A program made the position numbers and the translations under genes. Positions 54,300-64,000 of a stretch of DNA of 64,000 nt are shown here, one piece after another; positions within the stretch are counted from its first letter, which is position 1, and the number at the start of each line of letters is the position of its first letter. Location of the stretch: assembly GCF_004365705.1 (NCBI RefSeq), contig NZ_SOBN01000001.1:558001-622000 (forward strand), read 5' to 3'. Origin of the DNA: Streptomyces sp. 846.5. GTDB taxonomy: Bacteria; Actinomycetota; Actinomycetes; Streptomycetales; Streptomycetaceae. The notes beneath the pieces are model-generated. The model saw nothing but the letters and a program-made list of their open reading frames with translations. It made no database searches and had not been told where the DNA came from.

Positions 54300-54321
54300 A
54301 CAAACCGCCCAGGTGGTTTGT
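54300..54321. promoter_or_regulatory. ARE-like operator overlapping the promoter of the GBL-receptor-like gene
   Basis: ACAAACC-GCCCAGGT-GGTTTGT is a perfect 7-bp inverted repeat with an 8-nt spacer. It matches the autoregulatory element type bound by gamma-butyrolactone receptors (AAACC/GGTTT core). Its last base begins a TATACT box (54321-54326), so binding would block the -10 region. It lies 51 bp upstream of the receptor ATG. Confidence 0.85.
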
Positions 54322-54371
54322 ATACTGTCGAGCGTCGAGCCGACGAAACCAAGCACAAGGGGTGGTGGAGG

Positions 54372-55079
54372 ATGCAGGAGCGGGCCTTGCGTACGCGGAT
54401 GTTCCTGGTGGAGAGGGCCGCCGAGGTGTTCGCCCGGCGTGGTTACCGAGGCGCCTCGCTCGACGAGATCGCCACGGCGGCCGGGGTCTCCACCGGAGCA
54501 CTGCACTTCCACTTCCCGACCAAGGTGCAGCTCAGCGATGCCGTCCGCGCGGCCGGGCAGCCGGCCCTGCGCCTTCTCGTCCAGAGTCTCGACACCCGTC
54601 GCCCGGCACCGGTGCAGCAACTGATCAATCTGTCGCAGCTGGTGCTGGAGTGGCTCGCCGGAGATGTGAAGGTGCGGATCGCCGTCCGGATGCACCATGA
54701 ACTGCCGCCGGCCCCGGAGTCGGGACCCGACTTCTGCACGGACTGGCTGTACGAGATGCGCGTGCTCACCGCCCTGGCCGCCCGGAGGGGGAACCTGCTC
54801 CCCGGGCTCGACCTCCCGGAGGTCGACGCGACGATCGCTGCGGCGACCGCGGGCGCGGAGCTGCTCGCCGGGCGACAGGGACGCTGCCGCGGCGTCTCCG
54901 AGGTGGCGGCGACCTGGCGGCTCATCCTCCCCGGACTGGTGGGCGAGGCGGCGGCCCGTGGCCTCGATCCGTACGGCGGCCTGCATCTGGGAAACCGGTC
55001 CCGGCTCCCGCAGATCAGCCGGACGGCGCCGCCGACGGCCCCCCGGCTCCCCGTGCGCGTGCCTGTGCCCCGGAGATGA
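54372..55079 (+). CDS. Gamma-butyrolactone receptor-like TetR regulator 1
   Basis: 235 residues. The DNA-binding region EVFARRGYRGASLDEIATAA, then GVSTGALHFHFPTKVQLSDA, follows the ArpA/ScbR pattern. A Trp in FCTDWLYEMRVLTALAARRG is near the position of the ligand-contacting Trp of true receptors (alignment by eye). An ARE-like site is in its own promoter, which suggests autorepression released by a butyrolactone. The ATG has GGTGGAGG as RBS. The C-terminal tail is Arg/Pro rich and overlaps the convergent tetR by 65 bp. Confidence 0.85.
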   Translation: MQERALRTRMFLVERAAEVFARRGYRGASLDEIATAAGVSTGALHFHFPTKVQLSDAVRAAGQPALRLLVQSLDTRRPAPVQQLINLSQLVLEWLAGDVKVRIAVRMHHELPPAPESGPDFCTDWLYEMRVLTALAARRGNLLPGLDLPEVDATIAAATAGAELLAGRQGRCRGVSEVAATWRLILPGLVGEAAARGLDPYGGLHLGNRSRLPQISRTAPPTAPRLPVRVPVPRR

Positions 55080-55623
55080 GCAGTTCGCAGGAGCGCTCCG
55101 CCTTCGCCTGTGCCCGGTCCGGCCGGCCGAAGGTCCGAGCCATCGCCTGAGCTCCGAGCAACGCGCCCACCAGGGCGAAGGCGAGGGCGTCGGCCTCCGC
55201 CCCGGCAGCGGGCGACGGTGGGCGGCCGCGCTCCCCCCGGGCGGCCAACTGCGCTGCGAGCGCGTCGATCAGGAGCCGGTACCGCGGGGCCGGAGGATTC
55301 GGGCAGCCCTCGACGATCAGCCGCAGCCCCGCCCGCACGATCAGGTCACCGTCCGCCAGCGCCGCCAGCTCGCGGGCGAGGCCGTGCGCGCTCGCCTCGG
55401 CCGCGGCCCGGACGAATCCGCTCACCAGCTGCGCCTCGCAGGCGTCGACGACCACTTCGGCGAGTTCCTCCTTGGCGGCGAAGTGGAAGTACAGCGCGCC
55501 CCGGGCCGTACCGGACCTGCGTACGATCTCGGCCACCCCCGCGCCGACGTAACCGCGTTCGCCGAAGGTCGACGCGGCGCCGGCGATGATCGCGCCCCTC
55601 GTACGCTCCGCCCGCTCCTGCAC
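55015..55623 (-). CDS. Gamma-butyrolactone receptor-like (possible pseudo-receptor) TetR regulator 2
   Basis: 202 residues from the GTG at 55623. The HTH is FGERGYVGAGVAEIVRRSGT, then ARGALYFHFAAKEELAEVVV, close to the GBL-receptor family. The ligand region reads CPNPPAPRYRLLIDALAAQL and shows no Trp where regulator 1 has one. It is divergent from the afsA-like gene, with an ARE-like site between them. A promoter (TTGGGT-17-TACAGT) reads toward it. It may bind other ligands, as pseudo-receptors do. Confidence 0.82.
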   Translation of the reverse strand: MQERAERTRGAIIAGAASTFGERGYVGAGVAEIVRRSGTARGALYFHFAAKEELAEVVVDACEAQLVSGFVRAAAEASAHGLARELAALADGDLIVRAGLRLIVEGCPNPPAPRYRLLIDALAAQLAARGERGRPPSPAAGAEADALAFALVGALLGAQAMARTFGRPDRAQAKAERSCELLISGAQARARGAGGPSAAPSG

Positions 55624-55695
55624 CGTCGGGTACCTCCCTGTCAGCGCCGGGAACGATTGCCCCGACTGTAGCCCCAGCAAATCCTTGACCCAAAT

Positions 55696-55717
55696 AAAAA
55701 CCGGATGGTAGGTTTTT
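55696..55717. promoter_or_regulatory. ARE-like operator within the afsA-like promoter
   Basis: AAAAACC-GGATGGTA-GGTTTTT is a perfect 7-bp inverted repeat with the same 8-nt spacer as the site at 54300. It overlaps a plus-strand promoter TTGACC (55685) -18 bp- TAGGTT (55709). It also lies just upstream of the -35 box of the minus-strand tetR promoter. One bound receptor could therefore control both genes. Confidence 0.85.
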
Positions 55718-55762: not shown

Positions 55763-56797
55763 ATGTCGCTCAAGGAAATCGCCTTACCGTCCGCTGTCAC
55801 GGACCACCGGACAGCAGACCGTTCAGCCGACCGCACAGCGCCCGAGCCCAGTGGGCCGGGGAGCACGATGGTCGAGGACTTCTTCGCCCGCACCGTACCG
55901 CGCAAGCTCGTGCACCGCTCGGCGATATCCGAAGTTCTCGTCACCGCCTGCCGGGCGGTCGCATCCGACAGCTTCACGGTGGGGGCCCAACTCCCGCGCG
56001 CACACAGCTTCTACGGTCCGGTCGCGGCCCGCTGGCACGATCCGCTGCTGGTGGCCGAGGCCATCCGCCAGGCCGGCCTGGTCGTCTGCCACCAGGAGCT
56101 CGGCATCCCCCTGGACCACCAGTTCCTCATGCACGAACTGGCCTACGACATCGACCTGAACGGGCTGCTGGTCGCGGACCGGCCGGCCGACCTGGTACTC
56201 GCCGTCGAGGTCCGCGATCTGCGCCACCGGGCCCGGACCGTGTCGGGCGCCCGCCTGGAGATGACGGTCCACCGGGACGGGCGCTGGCTGGGCACCGGCG
56301 GAGCGCGCTTCGACTGCGTCTCCCCCGCCGCGTACAGCCGAATGCGCTCGATCGGCGGTTGTCCTCCCGAAGCCGCTGGCGCACCGACCGGAACCCCGGC
56401 CCCGGCCCTGCCGACACCCCTCGCGCCGGCCGCGGTCGGCCGCGACCGTCAGATGGACGTGGTCCTCTCCCCGGCCACCGGGCCGGCCGCATGGCTGCTG
56501 CGGGCCGATCGGTCGCACCCCGTGCTCTTCGACCACCCGGTCGACCACGCCCCCGGCATGCTGCTCGCCGAGGCGGCGCGGCAGGCGAGCGCCGCGCTGC
56601 TCGGCCGACCCGAGGCCCTGCCGGCCGCCTTCCGTATCGACTACCTGAGCTACGTCGAGCTGGACGCCCCCTGCGTGGTGCGTGCCCAGGTCCTGGAGCA
56701 GGCCGGCGACCTCGCCCAGGTGCGGGTGACCGTCGCCCAGGGCGGGGAGGTGGCGGTCCGCGGCCGGGTCACCGTCGTGACCGGGACCGGTGCCTGA
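55763..56797 (+). CDS. afsA: AfsA-type gamma-butyrolactone biosynthesis enzyme
   Basis: 344 residues with two hot-dog AfsA domains. The first has VPRKLVHRSAISEVLVT and WHDPLLVAEAIRQAGLVVCH. The second has HPVLFDHPVDHAPGMLLAEA. The conserved Glu/Arg pairs (EAIRQ, EAARQ) are present. AfsA condenses a beta-ketoacyl-ACP with dihydroxyacetone phosphate to start autoregulator synthesis. ATG 55763 is favoured by a GAGGGGGGA RBS. ATG 55721 (14 codons earlier) sits where a leaderless transcript would begin and is a real alternative. The end overlaps the reductase-like gene. Confidence 0.9.
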   Translation: MSLKEIALPSAVTDHRTADRSADRTAPEPSGPGSTMVEDFFARTVPRKLVHRSAISEVLVTACRAVASDSFTVGAQLPRAHSFYGPVAARWHDPLLVAEAIRQAGLVVCHQELGIPLDHQFLMHELAYDIDLNGLLVADRPADLVLAVEVRDLRHRARTVSGARLEMTVHRDGRWLGTGGARFDCVSPAAYSRMRSIGGCPPEAAGAPTGTPAPALPTPLAPAAVGRDRQMDVVLSPATGPAAWLLRADRSHPVLFDHPVDHAPGMLLAEAARQASAALLGRPEALPAAFRIDYLSYVELDAPCVVRAQVLEQAGDLAQVRVTVAQGGEVAVRGRVTVVTGTGA

Positions 56798-57788
56798 CCG
56801 GACGTCGCGTCCCCTGCTCGTGACGGGGGCCACCGGGTTCGTCGGCAGCGCTGTGGTCCGGGAACTCGTCGCACGGCAGGACCGCGCGACCGCCGGCGCC
56901 GCGGCCGGATCGTCCGGGCACAGGTTTCTGGCCCGCCGTGTCCCGGCGGGCCGCCCGGCCGGGGTCGGTGAGTGGCGCACGGCCGACCTCGACGACCCGA
57001 CCACGCTGCGGGGTTGCTGCGACGGGATCGACACGGTGCTGCATCTGGCCTCCCGGATAGGAGGTGACCCGGAGCAGTGCCGGCGCACCAACCTGCTGGG
57101 AACCGAGGCCCTGCTCGCCGAGGCGCACCGGGCCGGGGTCCGCCGGGTGGTCCTGCTGAGCACCGCCGCCGTGTACGGCGACGGCCCTCACCGCGGCTGC
57201 CGGGAGGGCGAGTTGACGCCGGCCCCGGTGTCCGCGACGAGCCGCAGCAGGCTCGCCGCGGAGCGCGTGGTGCTCGCGCACGGCGGAACGGTGGTCAGGC
57301 CGCATCTGATTCACGGGCCGGGGGACCGCTGGGTGCTGCCGGGCATCGCCGACCTGGTGCGCAAGGCACCCGCCTGGCCCGCCGGAGGCCGGGCCAGGGT
57401 GTCGCTGGTCGCGGTCGAGGATCTTGCCAGGGCCCTGCTGGCGCTGGCGCTCGACGGCGGGCATCCGCACCTGGCCGGACGCGTGCTGCACGCCGTCCAT
57501 CCGGAGCCCGTGAGCGTACGGGAGTTGATCGGCGCGGTCTGCGGACTGCTGGAACTTCCGCTTCCCGGAACGGAGCTGGACCGCGACCGGTTGACGCGTC
57601 GTCTGGTCGCGGCGGGTGCGGATCCCGCGGACCGACGGCCCGCCCTGCTGACCGTCGACCGCTGGTACGACGGCGACGCCCTGTGGCGCTGCACCGGTGT
57701 CGAGCCGGGGCCGGGATTCGCGCACCGGCTCGGGGAGCACTCCGGCTGGTACCGGGCGGCGCTCGGCGTGGGAGCCCGGTCGGTCTGA
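56790..57788 (+). CDS. NAD(P)-dependent epimerase/reductase of the GBL locus
   Basis: 332 residues, extended SDR. The nucleotide motif is LLVTGATGFVGSAVVRELVA; VVLLSTAAVYGDGPH is the Ser region. The catalytic Tyr appears replaced (APVSATSRSRLAAERVVLAH keeps no obvious YxxxK). Similar genes adjoin afsA in several GBL clusters, where they are thought to modify the autoregulator. The GTG overlaps the afsA stop by 8 bp, so translation is coupled. It converges with adk, leaving one base between stop codons. Confidence 0.85.
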   Translation: MPDRTSRPLLVTGATGFVGSAVVRELVARQDRATAGAAAGSSGHRFLARRVPAGRPAGVGEWRTADLDDPTTLRGCCDGIDTVLHLASRIGGDPEQCRRTNLLGTEALLAEAHRAGVRRVVLLSTAAVYGDGPHRGCREGELTPAPVSATSRSRLAAERVVLAHGGTVVRPHLIHGPGDRWVLPGIADLVRKAPAWPAGGRARVSLVAVEDLARALLALALDGGHPHLAGRVLHAVHPEPVSVRELIGAVCGLLELPLPGTELDRDRLTRRLVAAGADPADRRPALLTVDRWYDGDALWRCTGVEPGPGFAHRLGEHSGWYRAALGVGARSV

Positions 57789-58526: not shown

Positions 58527-59951
58527 TCAGCGGGTGGAGGCCTGCTGCGGCGTCTCCGGTGCGGCGATCCGTACCGGTGCCACCGGTGCGGTCACTGCGA
58601 CCGCGGGGTCCTGCACCCGCCCGGGTCGGCTGCGACTCAGCATCGCGACCAGCCCTGCGGAGAGGATCATCATGGCACCGGCCAGCCACAGGCCGGGCTT
58701 GGTCGAGCCGCTGTAGTCCTTCAGCCAGCCGGTGACGTACGGCGCGGCGAATCCACTGAGGCTGCCCACCGTGTTGACCAGCGCTATCCCTCCCGCAGCC
58801 GCCCGCCGGCTGAGCATCTCGGTCGGCAGCGCCCAGAACACCGGGATCGCGGACAGCACGGCCACCGCGCACACCGAGATGGCGGCCATGGTGGGCAGCG
58901 GACCGCCGAGGTAGAGCGCGCACGGGATGACCGCGCCGGCGACCAGCGCGGGGACGGCGACGTACGGGGCGCGCGACGGCGCCCGCTGGGCCCGCTTCGC
59001 CCAGCCCACCATGACGGCCGCGGCCAGCACGTACGGAACCGCGTTGATCAGTCCCCGCTGGATGATCGAGAAGTGGCCGCCGGACTGCGTCTCGAAGCCC
59101 TTGATGATGGTGGGCAGGAAGAAGCCGAGGGCGTACTGGCCGTAGATGATGCCGAAGTAGGCCAGTGCCAGCCCCCACACCCGGGGTGCCAGCCACTCCC
59201 TGGAGGCGCTGCGGTCCGCCGGCACCGCTGATCTGGACGACGCGGCGGCGTCCTGGTCCAGCCGGGCCGTGAGCAGGGTCTGCTCCTCCCCGGTCAGCCA
59301 GCGCGCGTCGCGCGGTCCGTTGGGCAGGAGTCTCCAGACCGCCACGGCCAGGAGCAGCGCGGGCGCTCCTTCGAGCAGGAACATCGCCCGCCAGCCGGCC
59401 ACCCCGAACAGGCTGTCGCTCCACTGGATCAGCATTCCCGACAGGGGTGCCCCGAGGGCCGTGGACAGGGGCAGGGCCAGGAAGAACCACGCCGTCAGCC
59501 GGGTGCGCACATCGTCGGGGAACCACAGCGTCAGATAGAGCACGATGCCGGGCAGGCACCCCGCCTCGGCGGTGCCGAGCAGGAACCGGGCGACCTCCAG
59601 CTCGGTCGCGTTCTGGACGAAGGCGGTGAGCGTGGCCACCACGCCCCAGACCACCAGGATCCGCGCCAGCCAGGAGCCGGCGCCGAATCTGTGCAGGGCC
59701 AGGTTGCTCGGCACTCCCAGGAGCGAGTAGCCGAGGAAGAAGATCCCCGAGGCCAGGCCGAAGGCGGTGGAGGTCAGGCCGAGGTCGTGGTTCATGCCGT
59801 TCGGCCCGGCGAAGGCGATGTTGCTGCGGTCCAGATAGCTGATCAGGTAGAGCAGGCCGAGCAGCGGAAGCAGCCGCTTGGCGGCCTTGCGGTGGAGGGC
59901 GGCGAGCAGCCGGCCGTCGTCGGTGGGCAGGGGTGTGCTCAGGTGCGTCAT
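58527..59951 (-). CDS. MFS transporter, anion:cation symporter (phthalate/tartrate permease-like) type
   Basis: 474 residues with twelve predicted helices. The signature is LYLISYLDRSNIAFAGPNGM in TM1 and GTAEAGCLPGIVLYLTLWFP near TM4, typical of the ACS family for organic anions. The central loop (residues 215-250) is hydrophilic. It should import or export a carboxylate. It is divergent from leuC and could carry a substrate or product of that pair. Confidence 0.88.
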   Translation of the reverse strand: MTHLSTPLPTDDGRLLAALHRKAAKRLLPLLGLLYLISYLDRSNIAFAGPNGMNHDLGLTSTAFGLASGIFFLGYSLLGVPSNLALHRFGAGSWLARILVVWGVVATLTAFVQNATELEVARFLLGTAEAGCLPGIVLYLTLWFPDDVRTRLTAWFFLALPLSTALGAPLSGMLIQWSDSLFGVAGWRAMFLLEGAPALLLAVAVWRLLPNGPRDARWLTGEEQTLLTARLDQDAAASSRSAVPADRSASREWLAPRVWGLALAYFGIIYGQYALGFFLPTIIKGFETQSGGHFSIIQRGLINAVPYVLAAAVMVGWAKRAQRAPSRAPYVAVPALVAGAVIPCALYLGGPLPTMAAISVCAVAVLSAIPVFWALPTEMLSRRAAAGGIALVNTVGSLSGFAAPYVTGWLKDYSGSTKPGLWLAGAMMILSAGLVAMLSRSRPGRVQDPAVAVTAPVAPVRIAAPETPQQASTR

Positions 59952-60349
59952 TGATCGTCTCCAGACAAGCATGCGGACGATGGGTTGCGCGAGAAGAGCG
60001 ATTGCGCGCGAGGAGCGACGGAACGGAATGCGCCTGCAGCGCACCCGGGAGAAGGTCCGGTCGTCGTCGACCGGCACGGAACTCGAATGACACCTGATTC
60101 AGGAGAGGCCGGGTGAAGATCACGGCAAGTCTCCGCAGTATGTCCGATCGAAAATGACCGTAAATGGCGCGAGCAGCCATTGGCAAGCTTTTTCTTGAAT
60201 CCGCCGACGGGCGGTGCGAAAGTTGCGAAGAGTCCTTTTTGTCTGTTATGCGATGGAATGTAAGCCGGTTGACAACAGACCGCGTATGCGGTTTTCTTTG
60301 ACTGTCAGGCGAAATCGCGGTGCCCGCAATACGAGACAGGAACTGTGAA
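59952..60349. promoter_or_regulatory. 398-bp divergent region between MFS and leuC-like genes
   Basis: The base composition is clearly lower in GC around 60120-60300. Features are a small inverted repeat ACCGC-GTAT-GCGGT (60279-60292), TTGACA at 60269-60274 and CAAG-CTTTTT-CTTG (60184-60197). The leuC GTG at 60350 is the family-consistent start. No small gene was found. Confidence 0.5.
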
Positions 60350-61789
60350 GTGACTGGTCAGACCCTTGCCGAGAAGGTGTGGGACACACACCTGGTGAGC
60401 CGGCAGCCCGGAGAGCCGGACATCCTCTACATCGACATGCACCTTCTCCACGAGGTGACGAGCCCTCAGGCATTCGACGGGCTCGGGCTTCGCGGGCGGC
60501 AGGTTCGCCGCCCCGGACTCACCCTCGCCACCGAGGACCACAACACCCCGACCCTGAATATCCTCAAGCCCATCGAGGATCCTTTTTCACGGGCCCAGGT
60601 CGAGGCAATTCGGGAGAACTGCAAGAAGTTCGGTGTACGAATTCACGAACTCGGCGACCCCGGCCAGGGAATTGTTCACGTCATCGGCCCGGAGACCGGG
60701 CTCACCCAGCCCGGAATGACCGTGGTCTGCGGCGACTCGCACACCTCGACGCACGGCGCCTTCGGCGCGCTGGCGTTCGGCATCGGCACCAGCGAGGTCG
60801 AGCACGTGCTCGCCACCCAGACCCTGCGGCTGCGCCCGTTCCGCACCATGGCCGTCAACCTGGTCGGCGCCCCGCGGCCCGGCGTCACCGCGAAGGACAT
60901 CATCCTCGCGGTGATCGGCCGCATCGGCACCGGCGGCGGCCAGGGGCACGTCATCGAATACCGCGGCGAGGTGCTCGCGGGGATGACGATGGAGGCCCGG
61001 ATGACGATCTGCAACATGTCGATCGAGGCCGGCGCGCGGGCCGGGATGATCGCGCCGGACGAGACCACCTTCGCCTACCTGCACGGCCGCCCCTACGCCC
61101 CGAGCGGCGCGCTCTGGGACCAGGCCGTCGCGCACTGGCGCACACTGCGCACCGACGAGGACGCGGTCTTCGACAAGGTGGTCGACATCGATCTGACCGA
61201 ACTCACCCCCTACGTCAGCTGGGGCACCAACCCGAGCCAGGTGCTGCCGCTGTCCGCCACCGTCCCCGCCCCGGAGGACGTCGCCGACCCGGACCAGCGC
61301 GCCGCCTGCGAACGCGCGCTGGAGTACATGGGCCTGAAGCCCGGTCAGGAGCTGACCGGCATTCCGGTCGACGCCGTCTTCCTCGGCTCCTGCACCAACG
61401 GCCGGCTGGAGGACCTGCGCGCCGCAGCGGCGGTGCTGCGCGGCCGCTCGGTCGCCCCGGGCCTGCGCATGCTGGTGGTCCCCGGGTCCGACCGGGTCCG
61501 CGAGGCAGCCGAGAGCGAAGGGCTGCACCACGTATTCCGGGACGCCGGCGCCGAGTGGCGCAATGCCGGCTGCTCGATGTGCATGGCGATGAACCCCGAC
61601 TTCCTCCAGCCGGGCCAGCGCGCGGCCTCCACCTCCAACCGCAACTTCGAGGGCCGTCAGGGAGCGGGGTCCCGCACCCACCTGGTCTCGCCCGCCGTCG
61701 CCGCGGCCACCGCGGTGGCCGGAGCACTCAGCTCCCCCGCCGACCTGCCCGCACCCCCTGCCGCCCGCTCCGTCACCGACGAGGTCTGA
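60350..61789 (+). CDS. leuC: 3-isopropylmalate dehydratase large subunit (LeuC-like)
   Basis: 479 residues. Features are [60 protein letters not shown] and [20 protein letters not shown], the last two carrying the [4Fe-4S] cysteines. It should isomerise 2-isopropylmalate or a related hydroxy diacid. The GTG at 60350 gives the usual start [12 protein letters not shown]. It pairs with leuD 2 bp downstream. A tRNA-leader or attenuation signal was not seen. Confidence 0.93.
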
Positions 61790-61791
61790 CC

Positions 61792-62385
61792 ATGCAAGCC
61801 TTCCGTCTCCACACCGGCCGCGTCCTGCCGATGCGACGCAGCAACGTCGACACCGACCAGTTGATCCCGGTCCGCTTCCTCAAACGGCTCACCCGGACCG
61901 GCTACGCCGACGGGCTGTTCGCCGCCTGGCGCGAGGACCCGGACTTTGAACTCAACCGCCCCGAGTACGCCGGCGCGAGCGTGCTGGTGGCCGGCCCCGA
62001 GTTCGGCACCGGCTCCTCCCGCGAGCACGCGGTGTGGGCGCTGCTCGACAGCGGCTTCCGGGCGGTGATCTCCTCCCGGTTCGCCGACATCTTCCGTGGC
62101 AACTCGTTGAAGAACGGTCTGCTGACGATCCAGCTCGACCAGGGCACCGTGGAGGCGCTCTGGCGACGGGCCGAGGAGTTCCCCGCCGAGGCCGTCACGA
62201 TCGACCTGGAGGCCCTGGAGGTACGGGCGGGCGACCTCCGGGTCGGCTTCGAACTCGACCCCTACCACCGGATGCGGCTGCTCGAAGGGCTCGACGAGGT
62301 GGACGCCACGCTACGGCACGAGGCCGCGGTCAGCGCCTACGAGGCAGGCCGCCCGGCCTGGATGCCCACGGTCGCGGCCGTCTGA
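61792..62385 (+). CDS. leuD: 3-isopropylmalate dehydratase small subunit (LeuD-like)
   Basis: 197 residues. The motifs RRSNVDTDQLIPVRFLKRLT, VLVAGPEFGTGSSREHAVWA and AVISSRFADIFRGNSLKNGL are all conserved. Together with LeuC it forms the active dehydratase. It starts 2 bp after the leuC stop. Since other leucine genes are absent and a transporter and regulators flank it, this may be a pathway-specific paralogue rather than the housekeeping copy. This cannot be decided here. Confidence 0.93.
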   Translation: MQAFRLHTGRVLPMRRSNVDTDQLIPVRFLKRLTRTGYADGLFAAWREDPDFELNRPEYAGASVLVAGPEFGTGSSREHAVWALLDSGFRAVISSRFADIFRGNSLKNGLLTIQLDQGTVEALWRRAEEFPAEAVTIDLEALEVRAGDLRVGFELDPYHRMRLLEGLDEVDATLRHEAAVSAYEAGRPAWMPTVAAV

Positions 62386-62418: not shown

Positions 62419-63651
62419 ATGTCCAGCGCCGTACGGAGATTCACCGCGTACCGAATCCTGTCCCGGAGCTACTTCCACCTGACGATCCTCTTCGTCTTCT
62501 TCTACGACCGGGGGCTGTCCCTGCCCGGCGTCGAGGCCGTCCTCGCGGTCTACGGGGCCACCCTGGCACTGGCCGGGCCCGTGGTCCGGCCCGTCGCCGC
62601 ACGGCTCAGTCTCACCGCCGCGGTCTCCCTCGGCGAGGTGCTCAAGGCCGTCGGACTGCTGCTCCTCGCCGCTCCCGGCGGCATACCGGTGGCCGTGGTC
62701 GCCCAGGTGGTCGCGGCACTCGGCTTCTCCCTGGCCAGCGGCACCGACTCGGCGCTGCTCGCCGAGATCTGCCGCCGCGACGGCGAGGACGCACGCGCCT
62801 GGGAGAGCCGCAGCGGCTCGCTCACCTTCATCGCGGCCCTGGTCGCCGGGGTCGCGGGCGCCGTCCTCTACCAGGCGAGCCACAACGGCCCGTTCGTGCT
62901 CTCCGCGGTCATGTCGGCGCTGGCCGCCGCCATGGCCGTGAGCGCCGGCCGCGGCCTGGACCGCGGCTCCGCCTCGGCGGCGCCGCGTCCCGCCGGCGCG
63001 GCCCCGGCCGCCGACGGCCGGGCCGGAGGCAATCCGCACGCCGGAGCGCTGCGCCGCTGGGCCGCCTTCTACACCATCGTCCGCGGCTTCGTCCTGGCCC
63101 TCTTCATCGGCTTCCTGCCCTACCTGCTGTACGTCCGGCTGCACGCCGCGCTCCCGGTCTTCGGGCTGATCCTCGGCTCGTACACACTCAGCGGCTACTT
63201 CAGCGCCCGCTACGCCAAGCTCCTGACCGAGCGGGTCGGCGCCAGGGGGACGGCTCTCGCCGCCATCGTGCTGACCGGTGCCGGGCTGCTGATCCTGCTC
63301 TGGCAGGAGAACGTCGCCGGCGCGGCCGTCGCCACCGTGGCCCTCGGCCTCGGCGTCGGCGGGGTACGGCCGATGGTGGTGGGCGCGGTGAACGACATCC
63401 TGGCCGATCGCCCGGCCACCGAGCGGGCGGCGGCGCTGCGCGCCAACGAGGCCAGGTTCGCTGCCTTCAACACCGTGCTGATCCTGCTGGCCGGGCTGGC
63501 CCTGGACCGGATCCCCTTCTCCCATCTGCTCGCCGGGCTCGCCCTGGGCTACCTGCTGGTGGCCGGTCTGGTCCTGGCGACGCTGCCGCGCGGCAACGAC
63601 GCGGCGGCAGAACCGGCGGCCGCGCCCGCTCCGGCAGCCACAGCACGCTGA
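62419..63651 (+). CDS. MFS-family transporter
   Basis: 410 residues with about eleven to twelve hydrophobic helices. The cytoplasmic loop is rich in Ala/Pro (residues 182-208), and the TM7 onset is RRWAAFYTIVRGFVLALFIG. TM2/3 contains GTDSALLAEICRRDGEDARA. It is a member of the drug-efflux-like MFS type. It follows leuD by 33 bp with GGAGG, so it is co-transcribed. It may export the product of the leuCD-associated pathway (inference). Confidence 0.85.
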   Translation: MSSAVRRFTAYRILSRSYFHLTILFVFFYDRGLSLPGVEAVLAVYGATLALAGPVVRPVAARLSLTAAVSLGEVLKAVGLLLLAAPGGIPVAVVAQVVAALGFSLASGTDSALLAEICRRDGEDARAWESRSGSLTFIAALVAGVAGAVLYQASHNGPFVLSAVMSALAAAMAVSAGRGLDRGSASAAPRPAGAAPAADGRAGGNPHAGALRRWAAFYTIVRGFVLALFIGFLPYLLYVRLHAALPVFGLILGSYTLSGYFSARYAKLLTERVGARGTALAAIVLTGAGLLILLWQENVAGAAVATVALGLGVGGVRPMVVGAVNDILADRPATERAAALRANEARFAAFNTVLILLAGLALDRIPFSHLLAGLALGYLLVAGLVLATLPRGNDAAAEPAAAPAPAATAR

Positions 63652-63726: not shown

Positions 63727-64000
63727 ATGGCCGACATCCGCCAGCGCGCCGCCATCACCAACTCCCTGGCCCAGAAGATCCTGGCCGCCGCGCTCAAGGC
63801 CGCGGAGGAACTGGGCATCCCCTCCGCCGTGGCCGTGGCCGACGAGTCCGGGCACCTCAACGCCTTCGCCCGGATGGACGGAGCGCCCCTGCTCGCCATC
63901 GACATCGCCCAGGACAAGGCCTACACGGCCGCGGGCTTCGGCCTAGCCACCGACGCCTGGCACGAGTTCATCAAGGACGACGCGCCCCTGGCCGCCGGCG
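63727..64000 (+). CDS. GlcG/HbpS-family protein (3' end outside window)
   Basis: Ninety-one codons are visible. The GlcG/HbpS family pattern is AAEELGIPSAVAVADESGHL with NAFARMDGAPLLAIDIAQDK and AYTAAGFGLATDAWHEFIKD. Members include the haem-binding HbpS of Streptomyces reticuli and many proteins of unknown role in operons with dehydratases. The ATG follows a CCGAAAGG sequence 8-15 bp upstream. The rest is cut by the window. It lies 75 bp after the MFS gene and is probably in the same operon. Confidence 0.85.
   Translation, partial: MADIRQRAAITNSLAQKILAAALKAAEELGIPSAVAVADESGHLNAFARMDGAPLLAIDIAQDKAYTAAGFGLATDAWHEFIKDDAPLAAG

What the first reader, a model, noticed from the sequence alone, without database searches (positions are those of the whole stretch)
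54300..55717. Two matched ARE-like operators define a butyrolactone circuit
Inverted repeats AAACC-N8-GGTTT, each with 7-bp perfect arms and identical 8-nt spacers, lie in the promoter of receptor-like gene 1 and in the shared promoter of receptor-like gene 2 and the afsA-like gene. This predicts autoregulation plus control of signal synthesis by the same proteins. The polyketide cluster 10 kb away may be a target.
Basis: partly seen in the sequence, partly recalled or inferred. Interest (0 to 1): 0.7.

Follow-up and report, generated by a model that had tools for sequence, protein, structure and literature searches.

The report
Butyrolactone-type operators flank a cispentacin-like cluster
Two of four conserved DNA switches of a bacterial hormone circuit lie here; the third in this window controls a neighbouring cispentacin/coronafacic-acid-like gene cluster rather than the aromatic polyketide cluster first suspected, and the same four switches sit at the same places in a species of another genus.

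Summary
ACAAACC-N8-GGTTTGT (54300-54321) and AAAAACC-N8-GGTTTTT (55696-55717) lie in the promoter of TetR1 and between TetR2 and the afsA homologue. The exact core occurs three times in 9.03 Mb, twice here (reversed control: 0). The 8-nt spacers match in length, not in sequence. A motif model trained on other genomes finds exactly four strong sites in 178 kb: these two, a third at 60277 before a leuCD-ACP-KS-AMP-ligase cluster resembling cispentacin/coronafacic acid clusters, and a fourth 9.4 kb beyond the window, before a canonical receptor gene at the far end of that cluster. One species of another genus has the same locus, with the four sites at the same four places (arms 47/48 identical, flanks about 36%). 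A third genome has the biosynthetic cluster without the signalling genes and without any site. The interpretation needs correcting: TetR1 looks like a pseudo-receptor, TetR2 is a tryptophan-less divergent regulator, the likely true receptor lies outside the window, and the aromatic type II PKS genes at 18-44 kb have no site. Binding, ligand and product are untested. It is a new member of a known kind.

The parts
54300..54321 (.). Operator 1, ACAAACC-N8-GGTTTGT, promoter of TetR1
   Evidence: 28.2 bits with a motif model from other genomes; conserved in G164 at 193502
54321..54326 (+). TATACT, likely -10 box of TetR1, abutting operator 1
   Evidence: read from sequence; not listed by the consensus scan
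54372..55079 (+). TetR1, ScbR-like regulator of pseudo-receptor type (235 aa, pI 10.8, pocket Trp present)
   Evidence: 59% identical orthologue in G164
55015..55626 (-). TetR2, divergent ScbR-like regulator without any Trp (203 aa, pI 9.0); its 3' end overlaps that of TetR1 by 65 bp
   Evidence: 46% identical orthologue in G164, also without Trp
55696..55717 (.). Operator 2, AAAAACC-N8-GGTTTTT, shared by TetR2 and afsA
   Evidence: 30.5 bits; conserved in G164 at 194863
55685..55714 (+). Promoter-like TTGACC-N18-TAGGTT of afsA, overlapped by operator 2; G164 has TTGTCG-N18-TAGGTT
   Evidence: read from sequence
55763..56797 (+). AfsA/ScbA-family signal synthase
   Evidence: Pfam AfsA, NF041195 333 bits, cut-off 200
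56790..57788 (+). NAD-dependent epimerase/dehydratase beside afsA, probably signal biosynthesis
   Evidence: Pfam; relatives beside afsA in several genomes of the genus
58527..60077 (-). MFS transporter divergent from leuC
   Evidence: 77% identical in G164
60277..60294 (.). Operator 3, AGACCGCGTATGCGGTTT, after a TTGACA (60269-60274) in front of the leuC operon
   Evidence: 24.2 bits; conserved in G164 at 199324, absent in G155
60320..61789 (+). leuC-like 3-isopropylmalate dehydratase large subunit, second copy in the genome, first gene of the target cluster
61789..62385 (+). leuD-like small subunit
62419..63651 (+). MFS transporter in the cluster
   Evidence: 79% identical in G164
63727..64000 (+). 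Start of a small HbpS-like gene; the cluster continues outside the window as far as 72.6 kb (ACP, KS, AMP ligase and others), followed by the canonical receptor (minus strand) with operator 4 at C1:631367

Best explanation
The palindromes are ARE-type operators of a butyrolactone-type signalling circuit with four operators, spanning window 54.3 kb to about 9.4 kb past the window. Inferred mechanism: without signal, the canonical receptor (C1:630755-631312, outside the window) represses its own gene, TetR1, TetR2/afsA and the leuCD-led biosynthetic operon by occupying operators that overlap promoter elements. AfsA and the neighbouring epimerase/dehydratase make the lipid signal; the signal releases the receptor, which raises signal synthesis and opens the cluster. 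TetR1 (pseudo-receptor type) then binds the same sites and shuts the circuit down or reads another ligand. TetR2, which lacks the ligand-pocket tryptophan, probably acts as a further repressor that does not answer to the butyrolactone. Shown by sequence: the sites, their rarity, their conservation and the gene classes. Inferred: binding, ligand, direction of control, product.
For: Exact core 3 in 9.03 Mb, two here. ARE-like sites precede ScbR/AfsA homologues across the genus: 47 of 93 upstream regions reach 9 of 12 consensus letters, 1 of 93 control regions do. A motif model built without this genome gives exactly four sites of 20 bits or more in 178 kb, none of 16 or more in 5 Mb of Markov sequence. 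G164, another genus, keeps all the genes in order and four sites at the same places, the only ones above 9 bits in 56 kb; arms 47/48 identical, flanks 16-21 of 50. G155 has the biosynthetic cluster but no receptor, TetR1, TetR2 or afsA and no site (best 7.2 bits; leuC upstream -3.8). In S. filipinensis receptor and pseudo-receptor bind AAACVGNNBVNNCSGTTT in the same promoters (PMC7480387); both sites here match 17 of 18 positions.
Against: No binding, expression or ligand data. TetR1 and TetR2 are below the curated cut-off of the ScbR family. Which protein binds which site is not resolved. Operator 4 is less symmetric. The motif model was seeded with a consensus, not found de novo. Only one other genome with the whole locus was found among about 1250 searched.
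Confidence: 0.82

Rival explanations
1. One reading: TetR1 and TetR2 are the receptors and act on the two sites only, with the aromatic polyketide cluster at 34-44 kb as possible target.
For: Both are ScbR-like and flank the sites.
Against: A better receptor with its own operator closes the locus in two genera. TetR2 has no Trp. No site above chance at 18-44 kb. Two further sites exist.
Confidence: 0.08
2. The operators are local autoregulatory sites only: each regulator controls its own neighbour and the leuC operator is bound by another regulator, so the cluster is not under butyrolactone control.
For: The regulators differ in class; operator 3 has AGACC instead of AAACC in one arm.
Against: Operator 3 scores like the others with a model trained on ScbR/AfsA promoters, is conserved in G164, and is absent where the signalling genes are absent.
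Confidence: 0.08
3. The palindromes are chance or belong to an unrelated TetR.
For: With two mismatches the relaxed motif is common (102 against 68 in the control).
Against: Exact rarity, four-for-four positional conservation and flank divergence.
Confidence: 0.02

Closest known systems
Streptomyces filipinensis SfbR/SfbR2/SfbA system (PMC7480387)
   Same: Receptor, pseudo-receptor, AfsA-type synthase and an epimerase; 18-bp ARE AAACVGNNBVNNCSGTTT in the regulator and synthase promoters, overlapping -10 or -35 boxes; SfbR2 is the nearest named relative of TetR1 found in genome contigs (34%).
   Different: There no ARE lies in the filipin cluster, so control is indirect; here an ARE lies directly before the biosynthetic operon. 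Here there is a third, Trp-less regulator, and the receptor lies at the far end of the cluster.
S. coelicolor ScbR/ScbA with ScbR2
   Same: A biosynthetic cluster (cpk) lies between the pseudo-receptor and the receptor/synthase genes (PMC7480387).
   Different: Here the pseudo-receptor stays beside the synthase and the receptor is the distant one.
Cispentacin (amc) and coronafacic acid (cfa) type II PKS-like clusters (PMC10698177)
   Same: ACP, KS (AmcF-like 285 bits), AmcG-like KS partner, AmcH-like ligase, FabA-like AmcE candidate.
   Different: All matches to the amc models are below their cut-offs; this cluster adds leuCD, ketoreductase, enoyl reductase, thioester reductase-like and TsaC-like genes, and a butyrolactone-type regulon.

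Membership tests
ARE operators of butyrolactone receptors | 18-22-bp palindrome AAACCG-N6-CGGTTT in promoters of receptor and synthase genes | tested here: met
   consensus from PMC7480387
ARE operators of butyrolactone receptors | Bound by the receptor and released by the ligand | not testable with these tools
   needs gel shifts
AfsA/ScbA signal synthase | Two AfsA hotdog domains, curated family score | tested here: met
   PF03756, two stretches; NF041195 333 bits, cut-off 200
ScbR-type receptor (TetR1, TetR2) | NF041196 score of at least 150 bits | tested here: not met
   139 and 105 bits; the receptor outside the window has 222
ScbR-type receptor (TetR1, TetR2) | Conserved ligand-pocket Trp (ArpA W119, ScbR W121; PMC3461410) and acidic pI | tested here: not met
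   TetR1: Trp present but pI 10.8; TetR2: no Trp, pI 9.0; receptor outside the window: Trp, pI 5.4
Pseudo-receptor (TetR1) | Groups with pseudo-receptors such as SfbR2, basic pI, convergent with the synthase-side regulator | tested here: met
   (support 83 for the clade); the G164 orthologue has pI 7.9
Pseudo-receptor (TetR1) | Binds antibiotics or intermediates instead of butyrolactones | not testable with these tools
   needs ligand assays
[quoted passage not shown]
   AmcB 74/80, AmcF 285/325 and AmcH 216/370 bits against cut-offs; FabA-like and KS-like candidates for AmcE and AmcG

The most novel reading that the evidence does not exclude
A conserved three-regulator module in which a tryptophan-less ScbR-like protein has taken the receptor's place beside the synthase, acting as a signal-blind repressor on the same operators, while the true receptor sits at the other end of an amc/cfa-like cluster: the first butyrolactone-type control of this pathway type.
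Probability: 0.4. Interest if true: 0.6.

Novelty: new member of a known kind. Interest (0 to 1): 0.5.

Why it matters
It predicts which genes to remove (the receptor outside the window, TetR1) to wake a rare cispentacin/coronafacic-acid-like cluster found in 3 of 394 genomes of the family, and it ties a butyrolactone-type signal to that pathway type, a link I did not find in the paper searches I ran. It also offers a conserved Trp-less regulator for testing whether some receptor-like proteins in these circuits have lost signal sensing.

Tried and rejected
Aromatic PKS cluster as target: rejected, no site above chance at 18-44 kb. Second AfsA/receptor pair at C1:541 kb: no such operator nearby (best 10.2 bits, at C1:547129), so probably a separate circuit. 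Other near-matches in the genome (C3:379916, C1:4410264, C1:1103852, C4:115747, C1:1962725): 9.1-13.1 bits only. A relaxed two-mismatch genome scan is not informative (102 against 68). The consensus promoter scan found nothing. Genome contigs gave only distant relatives of TetR1. Plasmids gave no close relative of the KS. No structure was predicted: the Trp question was settled by sequence.

Full report
Observation. Both palindromes are present as described: 54300-54321 ACAAACC-gcccaggt-GGTTTGT and 55696-55717 AAAAACC-ggatggta-GGTTTTT. The spacers agree in length only. In the 9.03-Mb genome the exact core AAACC-N8-GGTTT occurs three times, two of them here; the reversed control occurs zero times. 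With one mismatch the count is near background, 17 against 11.

Genes. TetR1 (54372-55079, plus) and TetR2 (55015-55626, minus) converge and overlap by 65 bp; afsA (55763-56797) diverges from TetR2 and is followed by an epimerase/dehydratase. AfsA passes the curated ScbA/BarX cut-off with 333 bits; the two TetRs score 139 and 105 on the ScbR family, below its cut-off of 150. Their nearest solved structures are butyrolactone-type receptors (5xay, CprB, AvaR1).

Is the motif real? Upstream regions of ScbR and AfsA homologues from the genomes of the genus plus S. filipinensis hold a site with 9 or more of the 12 letters of AAACCG-N6-CGGTTT in 47 of 93 cases, control regions in 1 of 93 (the window's own genes are included and some regions are shared by two genes). 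A model from 43 such sites, with the window's genome left out, was run over 178 kb around the window. Exactly four sites reach 20 bits: 55698 (30.5), 54302 (28.2), 60277 (24.2) and C1:631367 (21.5), the last outside the window; none reached 16 bits in 5 Mb of Markov sequence. The model was seeded with a consensus and was not found de novo.

Conservation. In G164, a genome of another genus, the locus is complete and in the same order: TetR1 59%, TetR2 46%, AfsA 61%, epimerase 62%, transporter 77%, leuC 86%, through to the receptor at 73%. The model finds four sites there at the same four places and nothing else above 9.0 bits in 56 kb. In G155, a third genus, the biosynthetic genes are present (KS 65%) but TetR1, TetR2, afsA, the epimerase and the receptor are not, and the best score is 7.2. 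Between the window's genome and G164 the twelve arm positions are 11, 12, 12 and 12 identical, while the 50 flanking bases are 17, 19, 21 and 16 identical. This is the strongest evidence: the palindromes are kept while their surroundings drift, and they are missing where the signalling genes are missing. It rests on one genome with the whole locus and one without the signalling genes.

Promoters. Site 2 overlaps TTGACC-N18-TAGGTT (G164: TTGTCG-N18-TAGGTT) before afsA. Site 3 follows a TTGACA that both genomes keep before leuC. Site 1 abuts TATACT. These boxes were read by eye; the scanner lists none at its thresholds (which covered sites 1 and 2). The positions fit repression.

Regulator classes. 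In a maximum-likelihood tree the receptor outside the window groups with genes divergent from afsA and with AvaR1, TylP and SfbR; TetR1 groups with SfbR2 and other convergent genes; TetR2 with its orthologue groups with four paralogues that also lack the pocket Trp (support 91). The name TylP for 5xay/5xaz is from memory; the record says only 'gamma-butyrolactone receptor protein'. Among genes in the receptor position in the genus, the pI is mostly 4.8-6.3; TetR2 has 9.0. TetR2 of both genomes contains no Trp at all. A Trp at this position is needed for ligand binding in ArpA (PMC3461410). Basic pI as a mark of pseudo-receptors has known exceptions (PMC7480387). In the synthase tree the window's AfsA is closest to synthases (L093, L097, L104) whose loci also hold neighbours of the receptor outside the window, which fits a matched pair; support is modest.

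Target. Downstream of site 3 lie leuC and leuD (a second leuC copy; the other is at C1:2682307), a transporter and an HbpS-like gene (name by eye), then outside the window an ACP, thioesterase, KS, thioester reductase-like protein, FabA-like protein, ketoreductase, FabI-like reductase, KS-like protein, AMP ligase and TsaC-like protein. Three of these resemble AmcB, AmcF and AmcH of cispentacin biosynthesis below the curated cut-offs. The set of AmcB, E, F, G and H-like genes fits what PMC10698177 calls the CFA type. The product is unknown. The aromatic type II PKS genes (KS, cyclase, methyltransferases) at roughly 18-44 kb have no site above chance (best 10.1 bits).

How it most likely works. 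Receptor represses; AfsA signal releases it; positive feedback on afsA; TetR1 and TetR2 damp or terminate the response. Only the sites, their conservation and the gene classes are shown; the rest follows from the known behaviour of such systems (PMC7480387, PMC7554373).

Verdict. A real, well-conserved member of a known kind of circuit.

Noticed in passing
window 55015-55079: The 3' ends of TetR1 and TetR2 overlap by 65 bp; their orthologues in G164 overlap by 56 bp, so the convergent overlap is conserved.
   Followed up: partly
G000:C1:540606-542057: A second AfsA/receptor pair lies 72 kb upstream of this locus without a detectable operator of this type; a third AfsA homologue at C2:715854 has an in-frame TGA.
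   Followed up: partly
L098, L103, L095, L076: Four ScbR-like paralogues near afsA loci also lack the pocket tryptophan and group with TetR2 (support 91): possibly a recurring third class of regulator.
   Followed up: partly
L068:7908-8606 (just outside the window): A TsaC/Sua5-like gene accompanies the biosynthetic cluster in all three genomes that carry it; its role there is unclear.
   Followed up: no
L074 and L075 (G001:C1): One receptor sequence occurs twice in the G001 chromosome, near both contig ends (2029 and 9813859), which suggests a terminal repeat or duplication.
   Followed up: no
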